Origin: Nevskiaceae bacterium
Lineage (GTDB): Bacteria > Pseudomonadota > Gammaproteobacteria > Nevskiales > Nevskiaceae
DNA length: 64,000 nucleotides
Assembly (NCBI GenBank): GCA_004297005.1
Contig: SCVA01000002.1
Span: 55,938-119,937 of the forward strand
Direction of reading: 5' to 3'
The position numbers were made by a program, and so were the translations under genes. Positions 56,626 to 63,572 of this stretch are shown piece after piece. Each line of letters begins with the position of its first letter. Positions within the stretch are counted from its first letter, which is position 1. The notes beneath the pieces were generated by a model that made no database searches, was not told the origin of the DNA, and was given only the letters and a program-made list of their open reading frames with translations.

Positions 56626-57534
56626 ATGACCGAACTCATCCAGCGTCGCGATCTCGACTTCCTGCTGCACGAATGGCTGCAGATCGAGACGCTCAACCGT
56701 CACCACCGCTATAGCGGCCAGGATCGCGCCACCTACGACGGCGTGATCGACGCCGCTACCGTGCTGGCCGAAGAGCAGTTCCTGCCCCACGCCGCCAAGC
56801 TCGACGCCAACGAGCCGCACTTCGACGGCGAGCGCGTGCACCTCATTCCCGAGGTGAAAGCGGCACTGGATGCCTACATTGAGGGCGGCTTCCTGGGCAC
56901 CGCTTTCGACACCGAATACGGCGGACTGCAACTGCCCTACACCATCTTCCAGGCGGTGAGCGCGCTGTTCACCGCCGCCAACATCGGCACCAGCGGCTAT
57001 CTCTTTCTCACCGGCGCCGCCGCCAACCTCTTGCGCGCGCACGGCACGTCGGCGCAGCGCAAGACCTACATGGAGCCGATGCTGGCCGGCCGCTGGTTCG
57101 GCACCATGTGCCTGTCGGAGCCGCAGGCCGGCTCCAGCCTGGGCGACATCAAGACCCGCGCCACGCCGCTGCCGGATGGTGGCTATGCGATCAGCGGCAA
57201 CAAGATGTGGATCTCCGGCGGCGAGCACGATCTGAGCGAGAACATCGTCCACCACGTCTTGGCGCGCATCGACGGCGCGCCGGCGGGCGTTAAGGGCATC
57301 TCGCTGTTCATCGTGCCCAAGTACCGCGTCAACGCCGACGGCAGCCTGGGCGCGAAGAACGGCGTGCGGCTGATGGGCCTCAACCACAAGATGGGTTACC
57401 GCGGCACCACCAACACCGCGCTCAGCTTCGGCGAGCAGGGCGACTGCGTGGGCGAACTGGTGGGAGCGCCCGGCCAGGGCCTGGCCTGCATGTTCCACAT
57501 GATTACCACTGACGGAAGTGTTACATTGCAGTAG
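56626..57534 (+). pseudogene. acyl-CoA dehydrogenase, 5' part, interrupted by a GInt-like element
   Basis: The frame is normal through residue 291 (...GLACMFH), then reads 11 element-derived residues to a stop. FAD/substrate segments such as LSEPQAGSSLGDIKTRATPL and SGNKMWISGG are present. The C-terminal half is at 62640-63572. Joining 57503 to 62645 gives 1806 nt, exactly 602 codons, coding for a 601-residue acyl-CoA dehydrogenase of the long type with a C-terminal extra domain. As it stands the gene cannot make the intact enzyme. Confidence 0.92.
57496..57503. repeat. left core repeat CACATGAT of the inserted element
   Basis: CACATGAT in the acyl-CoA dehydrogenase frame (H291, M292, first bases of M293). 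An identical copy stands at 62637-62644. Recombination between them removes the element precisely and restores the reading frame. It is likely the attachment core used by the recombinases. Confidence 0.82.
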
Positions 57535-57537
57535 TAT
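57509..57537 (+). promoter_or_regulatory. candidate leaderless promoter of ginA
   Basis: CTGACG (57509-57514), 17 bp, TAGTAT (57532-57537) forms a sigma-70-like promoter inside the element. The ginA ATG (57544) begins 6 bp after the -10 box, where transcription would normally start. Thus the mRNA may have no leader or Shine-Dalgarno sequence. Confidence 0.5.
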
Positions 57538-57543
57538 AGGTGC

Positions 57544-58698
57544 ATGCAGCTATTCCTGAGCACCGATGACTTCCGCCTCCACGGCCACACCTACCCCAAC
57601 TTTCCGATCCTGGTCTCCCAAGCAGGGGAGATCGAGAACGAGGTCTTGCAGTTCTGCGTCAAGCACCTGATCAAGCGCGGCCGCGTCCAGTCCATCAGGA
57701 GCTGGGAGAAGTACGGCAAAGACCTCTTGGACTTCTTCGACTGGTGCGAGGTCAACCAGATCGATTGGCGGGACATTGGCAATGACCGGGAGTCGACGAT
57801 CCTGGCTGAGTACCGGGACTGGGCGCTGGGTGAAGAGGTAGGCAACTCTCCCAGGACAGTGAATGGCCGGCTCAGGCTGTTGATGTCGTTCTACAGGTTC
57901 GCCTACAACCGAGGGTCCGTGTCCAGCGTGCCCTACGAGATGGAGACGATCTCGGTGAGGCAGCCGGTGGGCTTCCTGGCCCACGCAGATGCTACCGCCG
58001 GGCAGCGGCTGTCTCCGGATGTCCTGTTGCGCACGGCCAAGCCGGTGATCCGGGTGCTAAGCCGTGACCAGGCACGTTCGCTGGTCGCCGTGATCAGCAA
58101 CCCCACCCACAAGTTGGCGGTAAGGCTTGCGCTGACGACGGGGATGCGCCGCGAAGAGATTGCCACCTTCCCCGCCAAGTACGTGATCGACCCGCGCACG
58201 TACACCAAGTTTCGCTCGTTTATACGGGTGGTGCTGGATCCGCGCGATATGAGCACGAAAGGCAATCGAGCCCGAGGGATCGATGTGCCCAGGACAGTGA
58301 TGGAGGACATGTGGCAGTACCGGATCGACACGCGCCACCAGCTTGAGCAGCAGTCCGGCGTACAGTCGTCGGCCCTTTTCTTGAGTGAGGATGGGCTGCC
58401 GTTTCAGAACCATGGAGCAGCCTTACTCGGTGTGGTGAAGACCGCCGGCGCAGCAGCGGGCATCCCGTACATCAACGTCCATGTGTTGCGGCACACGTAT
58501 GCCACGCACACGCTCTATTCCATGATGAAGCGGAAGTCCGAAACCAACGCCCTGCTGTATGTGCGAGATAGATTGGGGCACGCCTCGGTGACGACGACTG
58601 AGGCATACCTCCATTGCCTGTCGGAGGTGGAGGACGGGGTGATGAACGATTACCAGGCAGACATCGACGCCATCACTCGGGAGGCGTCTGATGCCTAA
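57544..58698 (+). CDS. ginA: tyrosine recombinase GinA-like
   Basis: 384 residues: N-terminal SAM-like core-binding part (about 20-130) and catalytic domain with Arg202 (TGMRREE), HVLR (His313, Arg316), His346 (LGHASV) and Tyr355 (TEAYLH). The active-site set looks complete. It lies at the left end of the element. By analogy to GInts it acts with GinB, GinC and GinD for integration and excision. Confidence 0.85.
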   Translation: MQLFLSTDDFRLHGHTYPNFPILVSQAGEIENEVLQFCVKHLIKRGRVQSIRSWEKYGKDLLDFFDWCEVNQIDWRDIGNDRESTILAEYRDWALGEEVGNSPRTVNGRLRLLMSFYRFAYNRGSVSSVPYEMETISVRQPVGFLAHADATAGQRLSPDVLLRTAKPVIRVLSRDQARSLVAVISNPTHKLAVRLALTTGMRREEIATFPAKYVIDPRTYTKFRSFIRVVLDPRDMSTKGNRARGIDVPRTVMEDMWQYRIDTRHQLEQQSGVQSSALFLSEDGLPFQNHGAALLGVVKTAGAAAGIPYINVHVLRHTYATHTLYSMMKRKSETNALLYVRDRLGHASVTTTEAYLHCLSEVEDGVMNDYQADIDAITREASDA

Positions 58699-60310
58699 GA
58701 AGAACCGCCGTTCGACCAAGCCTCGCGGTGAGTTGTCGGCGAAGCTGCAACCGGCGCAACCAGCCGGCGAAGAGTCGTTCCCTCCGACAAAGACAATCGT
58801 GGAGCTTCCTGAGTCTTCCGATGGGCGACGACGTTGTGACTTCAAGCTCTACTATGGCAAGGGGTGCGATCGCATCGTGTATGCCTGCCAAACGGCGCTC
58901 GAACAGATGGCTGAACGGTCTCGGTCTTCGAGAGGGCAGTCCATCAGCGCGAGGTCCGTACATGCGTTCTACTCCAACGGGCTTCGCTCCTTTCTGCCCT
59001 ACTGCGCAATCATGGCGACCGCCCTGGACCGCGAACTCACTTTAGAGGACGTGGACCGCGGATTGATCGAGCGCTTCATTGCCCACATCACTGCTGGAGG
59101 TGGGAAGGCAACCGCCAAGAGGGCCAAGTACGGCCATGCGAAGTCAGTGTTGGTGCATCTAGTCCGACAGGGCCTCATTGCCAGGGATATCTTCCCCCGA
59201 AATCCCTTTCCGCGCGCAAACCATTCTGCTGTCGGGGAGTCGGCGCTCAGCGCGGGCGAAATGAAGGCGGTAACCAAGGCCCTGAAGCGGGATATGCAGC
59301 TGATCATGTCCGGCCAGGGTGAGTTGACGTCCGACGAGTTGGCGGTCTGTCTCCTGTCTATAGCGGCGCGAACGGGCCTAAACCCAGGCCCGCTTGTGCA
59401 GTTACATGTGGACTGCATTCAACCGCACCCGATCAAGGCTGACCGTTACGTGCTCGTGAGCTTCAAAAAGCGCGGCAACGCCACCCACATCCAGAGCATG
59501 CGGTACTCGAAGGATGTGGAGTTGATCGTCACTGCACTGCCTGACGTAGCCAGGATCGTCCGCATGGTGATCGAACGAAACGCCAGCGCGCGGGCGGCCA
59601 GCGCGTATCCGACCTCGCTCTTCGTATATGCCCGGCGCGACTTCGCTGTGTCCGGCATAGCCCGAATGTCGGCCCACGCATTGCAGGTTCATGCTCGGAA
59701 TTTCGTCGGTCAGCATGGGATCACGAACGCGGATGGCGCACCGCTGGCTTTGAACACCATGAGGTTGCGGAAGACCTTCGCAAACAGGGTGTTCGAGCTC
59801 TCCGGCCAGGATCCGTTCGTCACGGCCCGTCTCGGCGGACACACGCTGAAGGTGAGTAATGATGCGTACCTCGAAGCGCCGGTGGAGGCCGAAAAGAACT
59901 GGCGTCTCATGGGTGAGGTGCGGACCAACGACCGTATGAGCTTCGTGCCCGATGGGCACATTGAGATCACTCCGGTCGCGGGGTGTAAAGACACCAAGCG
60001 AGGTGAAATGGCCCCGAAGAATGGCACCGACCATTGCCAGAAGTTTCTAGCGTGCTTCCGGTGCAAGAGCTTCGTCGTCACCGCCGACGACCTGCACAGA
60101 GTCTTCAGCCTGTATTGGATGCTCATCCGTGAGCGCAAGCGGGTGGGCGTAAATGCGTGGTCCAAGCAGTACCGCCACATCATCCGGATCATCGACCGGG
60201 ATGTGGCCCCCAAGTTTGCACCCGACCTGGTCAGCAGGGTCCGCAACCACGCGGAGACAGTTCCCCATCCCTTCTGGGCTGACCCTGGGACGCTGGAGGG
60301 CGCGTTGTGA
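58691..60310 (+). CDS. ginB: tyrosine recombinase GinB-like, active site incomplete
   Basis: 539 residues, overlapping ginA by 8 bp. The catalytic domain has GLNPGPLVQL (Asn231 where the first Arg is expected), MRLR (Met357 for the His, Arg360 kept), His384 (GGHTLKV) and Tyr393 (AYLE). A C-terminal Cys-rich block HCQKFLACFRC (about 450-460) may bind zinc. The missing Arg and His suggest an impaired or helper role, though GinB-like proteins are reported essential. Confidence 0.78.
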   Translation: MPKKNRRSTKPRGELSAKLQPAQPAGEESFPPTKTIVELPESSDGRRRCDFKLYYGKGCDRIVYACQTALEQMAERSRSSRGQSISARSVHAFYSNGLRSFLPYCAIMATALDRELTLEDVDRGLIERFIAHITAGGGKATAKRAKYGHAKSVLVHLVRQGLIARDIFPRNPFPRANHSAVGESALSAGEMKAVTKALKRDMQLIMSGQGELTSDELAVCLLSIAARTGLNPGPLVQLHVDCIQPHPIKADRYVLVSFKKRGNATHIQSMRYSKDVELIVTALPDVARIVRMVIERNASARAASAYPTSLFVYARRDFAVSGIARMSAHALQVHARNFVGQHGITNADGAPLALNTMRLRKTFANRVFELSGQDPFVTARLGGHTLKVSNDAYLEAPVEAEKNWRLMGEVRTNDRMSFVPDGHIEITPVAGCKDTKRGEMAPKNGTDHCQKFLACFRCKSFVVTADDLHRVFSLYWMLIRERKRVGVNAWSKQYRHIIRIIDRDVAPKFAPDLVSRVRNHAETVPHPFWADPGTLEGAL

Positions 60311-62154
60311 GTGCAGTGCAGGTCGAATTTCGGGCAGGCCAGCTGAAGGCCCTCGAGGCCGCTCAGATGGGCTTGGAGGCGCCGGCGCTGCCTGTGACAG
60401 GGGTAATGCTTCCAGACGGCTCCTATCACGTCCTGAGCTGCCTGGGTGATGATGAATGGGTCCTCCCAGATGCATTGTTCCCGGCGAACGCGCAACCGAG
60501 CGCTAAGGTCCTGCGGTTCAGCTTGGCGCCGGCGTGCTTCAGGAGCGTGCTAAAGGCATGCACTCTTCGGTACTACCTCGTTGGCTTGGAGGGGAGCGTA
60601 CGGCCGAGGGGCGCGACGATCTTCGGGACATTCAGTCGGTTCGTCTCGTACCTGCGCTACCTGGACTCGCACGGCGTGTCGAGCCTCCGCGATGCAACCC
60701 CGTTCCACGGGGCCCAGTACGTGCAGCACTGCAGGGCGCTCAAGAGCCAGAAGGGCGAGTCGATCGGTAGCAGCAGCATCAAGCAACGGCTACAGGCGCT
60801 GGAGTACCTGCATGCTCTGAGCCAACACACAGCCACTCCGATGGCTCATCCATGGCCGGAAAGCTCTTCCGCCTTCCTAGCGGGAGCTACCGGTGATGGC
60901 CACTACCTGAGGCTCGGAGCTCGGACCAAGATCATCCCGGACGAGGTGATGGCCCCGTTCTTTCAGCACTGCGTTGCCCAGCTCGATAAGGCCGCCGACC
61001 TCATCGCCCTGCAAAGCAGCGTGCTTGGCTGGAGGCGACAGGGCCTGACTTCCGACACGATCACGGCGCGGCTGCGGAAGCAGGGCTGGGATCAGCGGCG
61101 GCTGGCCGATGAACTCGATCGCACCGTCGATGCATGCGCTGTCATCATCTTCGACACCAGCGGGGTGCGCGTGAGTGAGCTCGCCTCCTTGAATGCCGAT
61201 TGTGCCTACACCAAGGTGAAGGACGGCGAGCGGTATTACTGGATGAAAGGCGTCTCAGAAAAGCTCGGTCACGGTGCGGTTGAATGGCTGGTGGCGGAAA
61301 TTACCCATCGTGCGATCGCTGTTGCTGTCGAGATCTCAGCCCCGTTGAGAGAGCAGCTTCGACTCAACATCAGCCGGTCTCGTTCTCCTCAGGAGATTGC
61401 CAGCATGAAAGCTCATGCTGATGCCGTCTTTCTGGTTCGGCATGGGGGCCGCGCCGCCAGGCTGTCCAATGCCACGATACAAGACCGGATCAACATCCTG
61501 GCCGAGCGGTGCGGGATTGATTGGCGCTTCGCCAACCACCAGTTCCGTCGGACCTTCGCGGTGTACGCCGCTCATAGCGCGCTGGGAGACCTTCGGTACT
61601 TGAGGGAGCACTTCAAGCACTGGTCGTTGGATATGACCGCGCTCTATGCCATGAACCGCCAGCAGGACGCAGAGTTGTACGACGACATCGGGCACGCCTT
61701 CCTAGAGACCAAGATCGGCCTTCTCGAGAACTGGCTCGAGGAGGACGCCATTTTGACCGGCGGTGGCGCCGAGCCCATCAAAACCTTCAGGGCCGGCAAT
61801 CAGGCTCTCGTGACGAAAGCAGACCGACGCGAGATGGCGGAGACGATCAGTCCGCTCGTGCATATCCGCGCCACTGGCGTCGCTTGGTGCTTGGCAGACG
61901 CGGCAGGGTGCGCAGGGGGCACCGCTGCAGAGCGCACCAGGTGCGGAGACTGCTCTAACGCCGTTATCGACAAGGGACGGCAACCGATCTGGAGTGGCAT
62001 TTACAGGCAGCAATTGGAGTTACGAGATCTGCGTGATATCGGTGAGGGAGGACGGCAACGCGTCGAGCGCGACCTCGAGCGGGCTAGGCGTGTCCTGGTG
62101 GAGCTTGGCGCAAATGAAGAGGAGCTAGTGGATGAAACCAGCGGCGAAGAGTGA
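60307..62154 (+). CDS. ginC: tyrosine recombinase GinC-like
   Basis: 615 residues from GTG 60307, overlapping ginB (GTGA). Arg288 (SGVRVSEL), HQFR (His411, Arg414), His438-Trp439 and Tyr447 form a full catalytic set. The C-terminal part has Cys-rich CLADAAGC ... RCGDCSN (about 525-555), a likely zinc site, and a basic helix. It is the largest recombinase of the trio. Confidence 0.83.
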   Translation: MSAVQVEFRAGQLKALEAAQMGLEAPALPVTGVMLPDGSYHVLSCLGDDEWVLPDALFPANAQPSAKVLRFSLAPACFRSVLKACTLRYYLVGLEGSVRPRGATIFGTFSRFVSYLRYLDSHGVSSLRDATPFHGAQYVQHCRALKSQKGESIGSSSIKQRLQALEYLHALSQHTATPMAHPWPESSSAFLAGATGDGHYLRLGARTKIIPDEVMAPFFQHCVAQLDKAADLIALQSSVLGWRRQGLTSDTITARLRKQGWDQRRLADELDRTVDACAVIIFDTSGVRVSELASLNADCAYTKVKDGERYYWMKGVSEKLGHGAVEWLVAEITHRAIAVAVEISAPLREQLRLNISRSRSPQEIASMKAHADAVFLVRHGGRAARLSNATIQDRINILAERCGIDWRFANHQFRRTFAVYAAHSALGDLRYLREHFKHWSLDMTALYAMNRQQDAELYDDIGHAFLETKIGLLENWLEEDAILTGGGAEPIKTFRAGNQALVTKADRREMAETISPLVHIRATGVAWCLADAAGCAGGTAAERTRCGDCSNAVIDKGRQPIWSGIYRQQLELRDLRDIGEGGRQRVERDLERARRVLVELGANEEELVDETSGEE

Positions 62155-62560
62155 CGCCGAGAAGACGCGTGGCGAGACGACGCGCTCGGAGATCAATGCG
62201 GCCATCACTCGCATTAAAGCGGGGCGGCCGCGGCGTGTTCAGCCAGGTCGGAAGCTCTCCGTCGCGTCGGTTGCAGAGGAGGCGGGTATCAGTAGGGCGC
62301 TCATCCACAATAGCCATCCCGATCTAGCCGAGAAGATTCGCGCCGACGGAGGTACGAGTGTCCGGACGCAGCGCGATGCCAAGACCGAGGAGGCGAAGGA
62401 GGCTCGGGCGAAGAATCGAGTGCTGCGGCAAGAGCTTTCCGAGCAGCGCGAGTTGAATCGAGCTCTGGTGTCTCGAATGGCCACCTTGACCTTGGAGTTA
62501 GAGCGTTACAAACAGAATGCTAACAGTCCAAAAGTAACGGAAATATCACATAAAAGATGA
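62132..62560 (+). CDS. ginD: GinD-like small HTH/coiled-coil protein
   Basis: 142 residues overlapping ginC by 23 bp. A basic N-terminus, a helix-turn-helix (LSVASVAEEAGISRALIHN, about 42-60) and a coiled coil (about 85-128) are seen. It is the fourth gene of the gin operon and probably directs the recombinases to the ends. It lies next to the AT-rich right end. Confidence 0.8.
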   Translation: MKPAAKSDAEKTRGETTRSEINAAITRIKAGRPRRVQPGRKLSVASVAEEAGISRALIHNSHPDLAEKIRADGGTSVRTQRDAKTEEAKEARAKNRVLRQELSEQRELNRALVSRMATLTLELERYKQNANSPKVTEISHKR

Positions 62561-62644
62561 GGTAACTGTTACAAACATGAAAAGCGTTCTTATTCAAATG
62601 GTTGTACAATAGTTACATGTTACATACGAACGTAATCACATGAT
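62561..62644. repeat. AT-rich right end and core repeat of the element
   Basis: 84 bp, clearly AT-rich within a GC-rich genome, with GTTACA at 62568, 62612 and 62619 (further copies at 62505 within ginD and at 57520 by the left end) and ending in GTAATCACATGAT. GTTACAAACA occurs twice (62505, 62568). These look like recombinase or GinD binding sites, but that is inference. Confidence 0.7.
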
Positions 62645-63572
62645 GAACGAGGCGCGCATCGGCGTTGGCCTGAGCGCGGTCGCCCTCGCCTCCGCCGGCT
62701 ACCGCTACAGCCTGGACTACGCCAAGACCCGGCTACAGGGCCGCCCGGCCAGCAACAAGAACCCGGAGGCCAAGCCGGTCGCGATCATCGAGCACAGCGA
62801 TGTGCGCCGCATGCTGTTGCAGCAGAAAGCTTACGTTGAAGGTGGCCTGGCGCTGTGCCTGTACTGCGCGCGGCTGGTGGACGAGGAGCTGGCCAACTCC
62901 GACGCGCAGACGCGCGCCGACGCCCACCTGCTGCTGGACATCCTCACCCCCATCGCCAAGGCCTGGCCCAGCGAGTTCTGCCTGGAGGCCAACAAGCTCG
63001 CCATCCAGGTGCTGGGCGGCTACGGCTACACCCGCGACTACCCGGTCGAGCGCCTCTACCGCGACAACCGCCTCAACCCCATCCACGAGGGCACCAACGG
63101 CATCCAGGGCCTGGACCTCCTGGGCCGCAAGGTGATGATGCAGAACGGCGCCGCCCTCAAGCTGCTGCTCGGCCGCATCCAGGCCAGCATCGCCAGCGCC
63201 AAGGCCAGCGGCGACGCCGCACTGAACGAATACGCCGAGGCACTGGCCAAGGCCGTCGACGCCGCCACCCGCACCACCATGACCCTGGGCGCCACCGCCG
63301 CGCAGGGCAAGCTCGATCTCTTCCTCGCCAACGCCCATCTGTATCTGGAGATGATGGGCCACACCGTAATCGCCTGGCTGTGGCTGCAACAAGCGGAGCT
63401 GGCGACCCAGGCGCTACCCGGCGCCAGCGCCGCCGATCAGGACTACTACCAAGGCAAGCGCTGGGCCTGCCGCTACTTCATCCGCCACGAACTGCCGAAA
63501 GCGCTGCGGCAGTCTGAGTTGCTGATGAGCCTGGACGACACCGCGCTGAATCTGCCGATTGCGGCGCTGTAA
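62640..63572 (+). pseudogene. acyl-CoA dehydrogenase, 3' part
   Basis: Continues the 56626 gene from MNEARIGVG onward; with an ATG ATG at the junction it is open for 310 codons. It holds the catalytic Glu region RLNPIHEGTNGIQGLDLLG and a C-terminal extra domain as in long acyl-CoA dehydrogenases. Translation alone would give an incomplete protein without the FAD/substrate N-domain. Confidence 0.9.

What the first reader, a model, noticed from the sequence alone, without database searches (positions are those of the whole stretch)
57496..62644. Cargo-less GInt: a minimal ginABCD mobile element
GInts are described (to my memory) as islands with ginABCD, a cargo of at least about 2.5 kb and an AT-rich 3' end. 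Here three tyrosine recombinases, a small HTH/coiled-coil protein and an AT-rich end form the whole 5.1 kb, with no cargo. This may be the simplest autonomous form, or one that lost or never gained cargo, and would help define what the system needs.
Basis: partly seen in the sequence, partly recalled or inferred. Interest (0 to 1): 0.85.

Follow-up and report, generated by a model that had tools for sequence, protein, structure and literature searches.

The report
Cargo-free four-gene copy-out mobile element
A 5.1-kb mobile element holding only four recombination genes sits inside a predicted acyl-CoA dehydrogenase gene, and four cargo-free relatives of nearly the same size in other bacteria suggest a long-lived minimal element that likely moves by copying itself out as a circle.

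Summary
The element is 57502-62636 (5135 bp), with the 6-bp core CACATG on both sides, inside an acyl-CoA dehydrogenase gene that is uninterrupted in related genomes. It has four overlapping genes, a 76-bp AT-rich end and no cargo.

The name GInt does not hold. [quoted passage not shown] the first integrase also matches a Tn554-type TnpA. The one GInt compared (E. coli, at ssb) matches none of the four proteins.

It is not a lone deletion. Four relatives at 49-67% protein identity are 5140-5152 bp, cargo-free, with the same ends, the same 42-bp leader and NNNATG cores. Two further clade members lack a recognisable right end. Three relatives with both flanks known sit on start codons. Where the two cores differ (2 cases), the left one looks native, as in SE and Tn554 insertions.

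A cargo-free SE (SE-AmaTe101, 6353 bp) is already in print, so the news is a stereotyped cargo-free lineage and its start-codon targets. Movement is inferred, not tested.

The parts
56626..57501 (+). 5' part of the interrupted acyl-CoA dehydrogenase gene (its frame runs on to a stop at 57532-57534 inside the element)
   Evidence: Pfam Acyl-CoA_dh_N and Acyl-CoA_dh_M; uninterrupted homologues in relatives
57496..57501 (.). left 6-bp core CACATG
57502..57528 (+). left terminal motif, begins ATTACC
   Evidence: leave-one-out profile of six relatives finds it as the best site in the 64-kb window, 20.8 bits against 10.1 for the next
57532..57537 (+). promoter -10-like hexamer TAGTAT, 6 nt before the orfA start codon (predicted)
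   Evidence: TANNNT at this place in 6 of 7 clade members, 2 of 416 control ATGs; the general promoter scan found no site
57544..58698 (+). orfA, IntA/TnpA-like tyrosine recombinase, 384 aa, full catalytic set
58691..60310 (+). orfB, Tfp-like protein, 539 aa, lacks the first catalytic Arg
60307..62154 (+). orfC, IntB-like large tyrosine recombinase, 615 aa, full catalytic set
62132..62560 (+). orfD, Srap-like small protein, 142 aa
62561..62636 (+). AT-rich right end (G+C 0.32); terminal motif 62611-62636 ends CGTAAT
   Evidence: leave-one-out profile of four relatives finds it as the best site in the window, 26.2 bits against 8.4
62637..62642 (.). right 6-bp core CACATG
62640..63572 (+). 3' part of the acyl-CoA dehydrogenase gene, open from the ATG of the right core

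Best explanation
The 5135-bp segment is a four-gene, cargo-free element with conserved ends, nearest to the SEs and tied to Tn554, and is predicted to move by copying itself out as a circle that recombines into NNNATG sites. Shown by sequence: exact ends, empty sites in relatives, four open genes, two complete catalytic sets, and four relatives of nearly the same length with the same ends. Inferred from SE work: integrases A and C, with the degenerate B and the small protein D as partners, would cut 6 bp apart at both ends and exchange one strand, giving a circle with the joint GTAAT-CACATG-ATTAC while the donor copy stays. The circle would then enter a new NNNATG site, leaving the host hexamer on the left and the hexamer of the previous site on the right. 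Where the target ATG is a start codon, the downstream gene would keep an ATG but be cut off from its ribosome site. The operon is likely expressed from a promoter inside the left end.
For: Exact ends and empty sites. Catalytic sets in A and C. Genes A, B and C in this order on one strand in 84 loci, D also found in 79 of them (five of the 80 loci were dropped as broken or reversed). Collinear similarity to SE proteins and of A to TnpA. Five complete elements of 5135-5152 bp with exactly 42 bp from left end to orfA. Six-bp spacer between GTAAT and ATTAC at the predicted circle joint; a 6-bp spacer between inverted repeats is a criterion for SE ends in PMC10214605. Native-looking left core in L019, where the upstream frame's stop reaches into it, and in L155, where AAGGG lies 7 nt before its ATG.
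Against: No circle, movement or strand bias was tested. Local identity to SE proteins is only 22-34%, and some comparisons fail: B against the Citrobacter set gives E 8.1, and SE-PaeBT2436 gives E 1.0 for A and no hit for B. Beyond five bases the terminal inverted repeats are weak. The search for the empty site of L155 was inconclusive. The genome has a single copy, so recent activity is not evident. Two of seven clade members have no recognisable right end.
Confidence: 0.78

Rival explanations
1. It is a GInt that lost or never gained cargo.
For: Four genes, AT-rich 3' end and direct repeats at the ends; GInts also leave hybrid repeats after 6-nt staggered cuts (PMC5385486). Weak links exist elsewhere in the family: GinC to the Methylophaga C protein (E 5e-5) and GinA to a Vibrio A protein (E 0.002).
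Against: Gene order differs; the E. coli reference matches none of the four window proteins by blastp (best E 0.74), and by profile no more than 20%.
Confidence: 0.06
2. It is a Tn554-family transposon that gained an extra gene.
For: A matches TnpA (E 3e-13); in the tree the TnpA row falls among the A proteins of this family while the SE IntA rows fall outside; 6-bp import to one side is also reported for Tn554 (PMC10214605).
Against: Tn554 has three genes and no Tfp counterpart (PMC10214605); B is kept through the family. The tree joins involve long branches that the tool marks as unsure.
Confidence: 0.1
3. It is a dead relic or a deletion derivative of a cargo-bearing island, moved and expressed no more.
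For: Single copy; no movement tested; members of sister clades have cargo-like genes after D.
Against: All four genes open, catalytic residues kept, both ends matched in profile, and four relatives with nearly the same length.
Confidence: 0.06

Closest known systems
Strand-biased circularizing integrative elements (SE-Pda04Ya311 on pAQU1, SE-PaeBT2436 on pBT2436; SE-6283 and SE-6945 from the papers)
   Same: Order intA-tfp-intB-srap, Arg-His-Arg-Tyr in the first and third products, 6-bp core, collinear weak similarity, right-hand hexamer that looks imported
   Different: 22-34% local identity; A of 384 aa against 429-545 aa in the two SEs fetched; no cargo; NNNATG core instead of the T-rich core of SE-6945 targets; weaker terminal repeats
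SE-AmaTe101 (PMC10214605; not fetched)
   Same: Printed as an SE without cargo
   Different: 6353 bp and a single case in print; its sequence was not compared here
Tn554-type transposons (L165; name Tn558 recalled)
   Same: A matches TnpA (E 3e-13); small fourth-type protein; 6-bp footprint described for Tn554
   Different: No B counterpart; cargo present
GInts (E. coli ssb element, L162)
   Same: Four-gene operon, AT-rich 3' end, site-specific insertion
   Different: Degenerate gene is third, no significant match to the four window proteins, cargo present (avs4)

Membership tests
GInt | ginABCD order with the degenerate GinC third, next to ginD | tested here: not met
   Degenerate protein is second, third is fully catalytic; definition from PMC5385486 and PMC10214605
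GInt | GinABCD sequence similarity | tested here: not met
   Best blastp E 0.74, profiles 20% or less; one E. coli reference only, GInt by my reading of its site and layout
GInt | cargo of 2.5 to at least 70 kb | tested here: not met
   76 bp between orfD and right end
GInt | direct imperfect repeats of 10-17 nt at the ends | tested here: inconclusive
   8 identical bases CACATGAT, 6 of them the core
SE | order intA-tfp-intB-srap with catalytic first and third products and a second one lacking the motif | tested here: met
   B keeps one Arg and the Tyr
SE | sequence similarity of Tfp and Srap | tested here: met
   B 97.8% against a Tfp profile and 62% against one Tfp, D 95% against Srap; the papers' own PSI-BLAST sets were not available, and they filtered Tfp under 550 aa
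SE | split attB kept at both ends and a 6-bp spacer in the circle joint | tested here: met
SE | 13-19 bp imperfect terminal inverted repeats | tested here: inconclusive
   GTAAT/ATTAC exact, the rest weak
SE | strand-biased circle formation without an empty donor site | not testable with these tools
   Needs PCR and sequencing of joints
Tn554 | three genes tnpABC, no Tfp counterpart | tested here: not met
   orfB present and kept in relatives
RIT | three recombinases of 315-410 aa, all with the catalytic Tyr, 34-bp inverted repeats | tested here: not met
   384, 539 and 615 aa plus orfD; definition from PMC10214605; RIT sequences were not compared

The most novel reading that the evidence does not exclude
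An undescribed, IS-like lineage of copy-out elements: held at about 5.14 kb, stripped to two integrases, a degenerate third one and one helper, with a leaderless promoter built into the left end. It jumps onto gene start codons, takes the target away from its ribosome site and hands it an ATG carried over from its previous address.
Probability: 0.5. Interest if true: 0.65.

Novelty: new variant of a known kind. Interest (0 to 1): 0.47.

Why it matters
SE- and Tn554-type elements carry resistance genes, but what they need to move is unclear and most described ones are larger. A natural lineage that keeps only four genes and two short ends, within 17 bp of the same length while proteins differ by a third to a half, would define the working unit and give a small test bed for the copy-out question. 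The start-codon targets and the imported hexamer would let past moves be read from sequence alone.

Tried and rejected
GInt, RIT and plain Tn554 were considered and rejected as above. A scan of viral contigs with the orfB alignment found no relative (69 stretches matched a pattern, none encoded one). In a sample of 369 class genomes 2 had orfB at E 1e-20, our own included; among 85 order genomes only our own and G060 had full-length orfC. The right end alone gave one clear hit in 58 family genomes, our own; two others at E 0.26 and 0.34 look like chance. The empty-site test for L155 failed because G061 and G062 are too diverged. A search for purD in relatives of L019 reached one genome, its own. 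A sigma-70 scan of 57400-62800 found no promoter-like site. The orfB model has mean pLDDT 71 and pTM 0.44, residues 365-461 mostly under 50, so the fold search (XerH, Cre; best E 4e-5, TM-score by query 0.3-0.4) supports only the general fold; by sequence the orfB profile had no real match in solved structures. Tree joins of the GInt, SE and Tn558 rows are unsure, as the tool warns; the 39 rows were a chosen subset. Possible right ends of sister elements (L003, L020, L021) score 10-13 bits, no more than background sites elsewhere.

Full report
Observation. ORFs of 384, 539, 615 and 142 aa run on one strand from 57544 to 62560, each overlapping the next. They lie between two parts of an acyl-CoA dehydrogenase gene. 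The left part ends TTC-CACATG, the right part begins CACATG-ATGAAC, and the element between the two hexamers is 57502-62636, 5135 bp. Relatives carry TTC-CACATG-ATGAAC uninterrupted: a strict pattern matched 24 of 29 other loci, three of them in the same genus, and the open frame is 597-869 codons in those 29 against 305 here. There is no cargo: 76 bp with G+C 0.32 separate orfD from the right end.

Proteins. A and C carry the Arg, Lys, His, Arg, His, Tyr set of tyrosine recombinases, invariant in alignments of 18 and 17 family members (roles assigned from recalled motifs, for C also from the alignment to an archaeal Xer). B has GxN where the first Arg is expected and keeps Arg360 and Tyr393 in all 28 aligned. 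A model of B (mean pLDDT 71) resembles XerH and Cre, best E 4e-5. D has weak HTH hits; a coiled coil in its second half is my reading, no predictor was run.

Which family. Two papers give the yardsticks. PMC5385486 (abstract, Results, Discussion and figure legends seen): GInts have ginABCD, GinC lacks the first Arg, cargo from 2.5 to at least 70 kb. PMC10214605 (abstract, first part of Background, Results, Discussion, one methods section and passages seen): SEs have intA-tfp-intB-srap, Tfp lacks the catalytic motif. References used: the SE of pAQU1; SE-PaeBT2436 in pBT2436, recognised by the two protein accessions printed in the paper; an SE-like set in Citrobacter (SE by my reading); two E. 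coli records with an element at the 3' end of ssb in the GInt layout, one used (GInt by my reading); and a Tn554-type element (the name Tn558 is recalled).

By blastp the window proteins match the pAQU1 and Citrobacter sets in order: A E 1e-7 and 1e-17, B 8e-4 and 8.1, C 2e-15 and 1e-17, D 4e-5 and 2e-5. SE-PaeBT2436 is weaker: A 1.0, B none, C 0.003, D 3e-4. GInt proteins give E 0.74 or worse. Profile comparison gives 98% for C with IntB, 95% for D with Srap, 62% for B with one Tfp and 97.8% with a Tfp profile, against 0.5-20% for GInt proteins. Against a sharp border, other family members show weak links to GInts (GinC to the Methylophaga C protein, E 5e-5; GinA to a Vibrio A protein, 0.002), and TnpA matches GinA (E 1.5e-8), so all these systems may be remotely related. 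In SE-PaeBT2436 the second product has a weak Phage_integrase hit and the third none, so Pfam alone does not separate the types. On balance the element works like an SE and by order and sequence stands nearest to SEs, with a tie to Tn554 through A (E 3e-13). It is not a GInt by the features tested.

Relatives. An alignment of B found 80 loci in the genome collection (best 80 of 86). Genes A, B and C were found in this order on one strand in 84 loci, 75 of them, eight from plasmid records and one the window's own; D was also found in 79. Five of the seven have both ends: 5135, 5152, 5147, 5140 and 5143 bp. The left end lies exactly 42 bp before orfA in these five and in the two Vreelandella. 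Leave-one-out profiles find each of five right ends and seven left ends as the best site of its own sequence. Both Vreelandella copies lack a recognisable right end: L018 also lacks D; L017 shows none in the 7.7 kb held and is damaged or carries cargo. In other clades, arsenic genes, an integron with beta-lactamase genes and mercury genes follow D; I did not delimit those elements. Whether the cargo-free state is ancestral or one old loss cannot be told.

Target and footprint. All seven left cores (L016 shows only its ATG) and all five right cores end in ATG. In L015, L019 and L155 that ATG opens the downstream reading frame; by my reading of the translations these are a lipoprotein-like gene, purD and a large peptidase. 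In the window it is an internal Met-Met pair. In L019 the cores are GATATG and GGGATG; the upstream frame, purH by my reading, ends MRHFRH with its TGA reaching into the left core, so the left core looks native. In L155 (GTCATG and ACCATG) AAGGG lies 7 nt before the left ATG. These two cases agree with the rule described for SEs and Tn554, host hexamer left and imported hexamer right (PMC10214605); no empty site of L019 or L155 was found to prove it. In the window and L015 the cores are identical and say nothing.

Expression. A hexamer TANNNT ends 6 nt before the orfA start in 6 of 7 clade members, against 2 of 416 control ATGs in the window. This would give a leaderless transcript; it is a prediction, and the general scan found no promoter.

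Mechanism. Inferred from SE work: one-strand exchange between the ends by A and C with B and D as partners, a circle with joint GTAAT-CACATG-ATTAC, retention of the donor copy, integration at another NNNATG site. None of these steps was tested.

Novelty. A cargo-free SE is in print (SE-AmaTe101, 6353 bp; PMC10214605), and a synthetic minimal GInt was built (PMC5385486). Searches of the held library (with 8 papers, 117 with 4) listed no title or abstract start that describes a cargo-free lineage or start-codon targets; apart from the sections named and passages of PMC9345347 and PMC8138268, bodies were not read. I therefore rate it a new variant of a known kind.

Noticed in passing
L166 and L170 (plasmid pBT2436): One Pseudomonas plasmid carries two different four-gene systems: SE-PaeBT2436 with tmexCD-toprJ genes, and a member of the present family followed by mercury genes.
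   Followed up: partly
L005, L007, L011: Relatives on plasmids lie next to umuC/umuD-type DNA polymerase V genes, which suggests a second preferred target.
   Followed up: no
L162, L163 (E. coli ssb): Elements of GInt layout at the end of ssb carry the antiphage gene avs4. About 430 of 5375 E. coli genomes with a match have no place covering 80% of ssb-yjcB, which may in part reflect such insertions.
   Followed up: no
L016 (Marinobacter goseongensis contig54, 5160 bp): The contig begins and ends at the element's own ends, as collapsed repeats do, so this copy may be multicopy.
   Followed up: no
L012 and L013: A more distant four-gene set in Pseudomonas plasmids, 27-29% identical to orfA-C, whose second product is annotated as a recombinase.
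   Followed up: partly
L170:11117-14883: In SE-PaeBT2436 the second product has a weak Phage_integrase hit and the third has none, the reverse of what the SE description leads one to expect.
   Followed up: no
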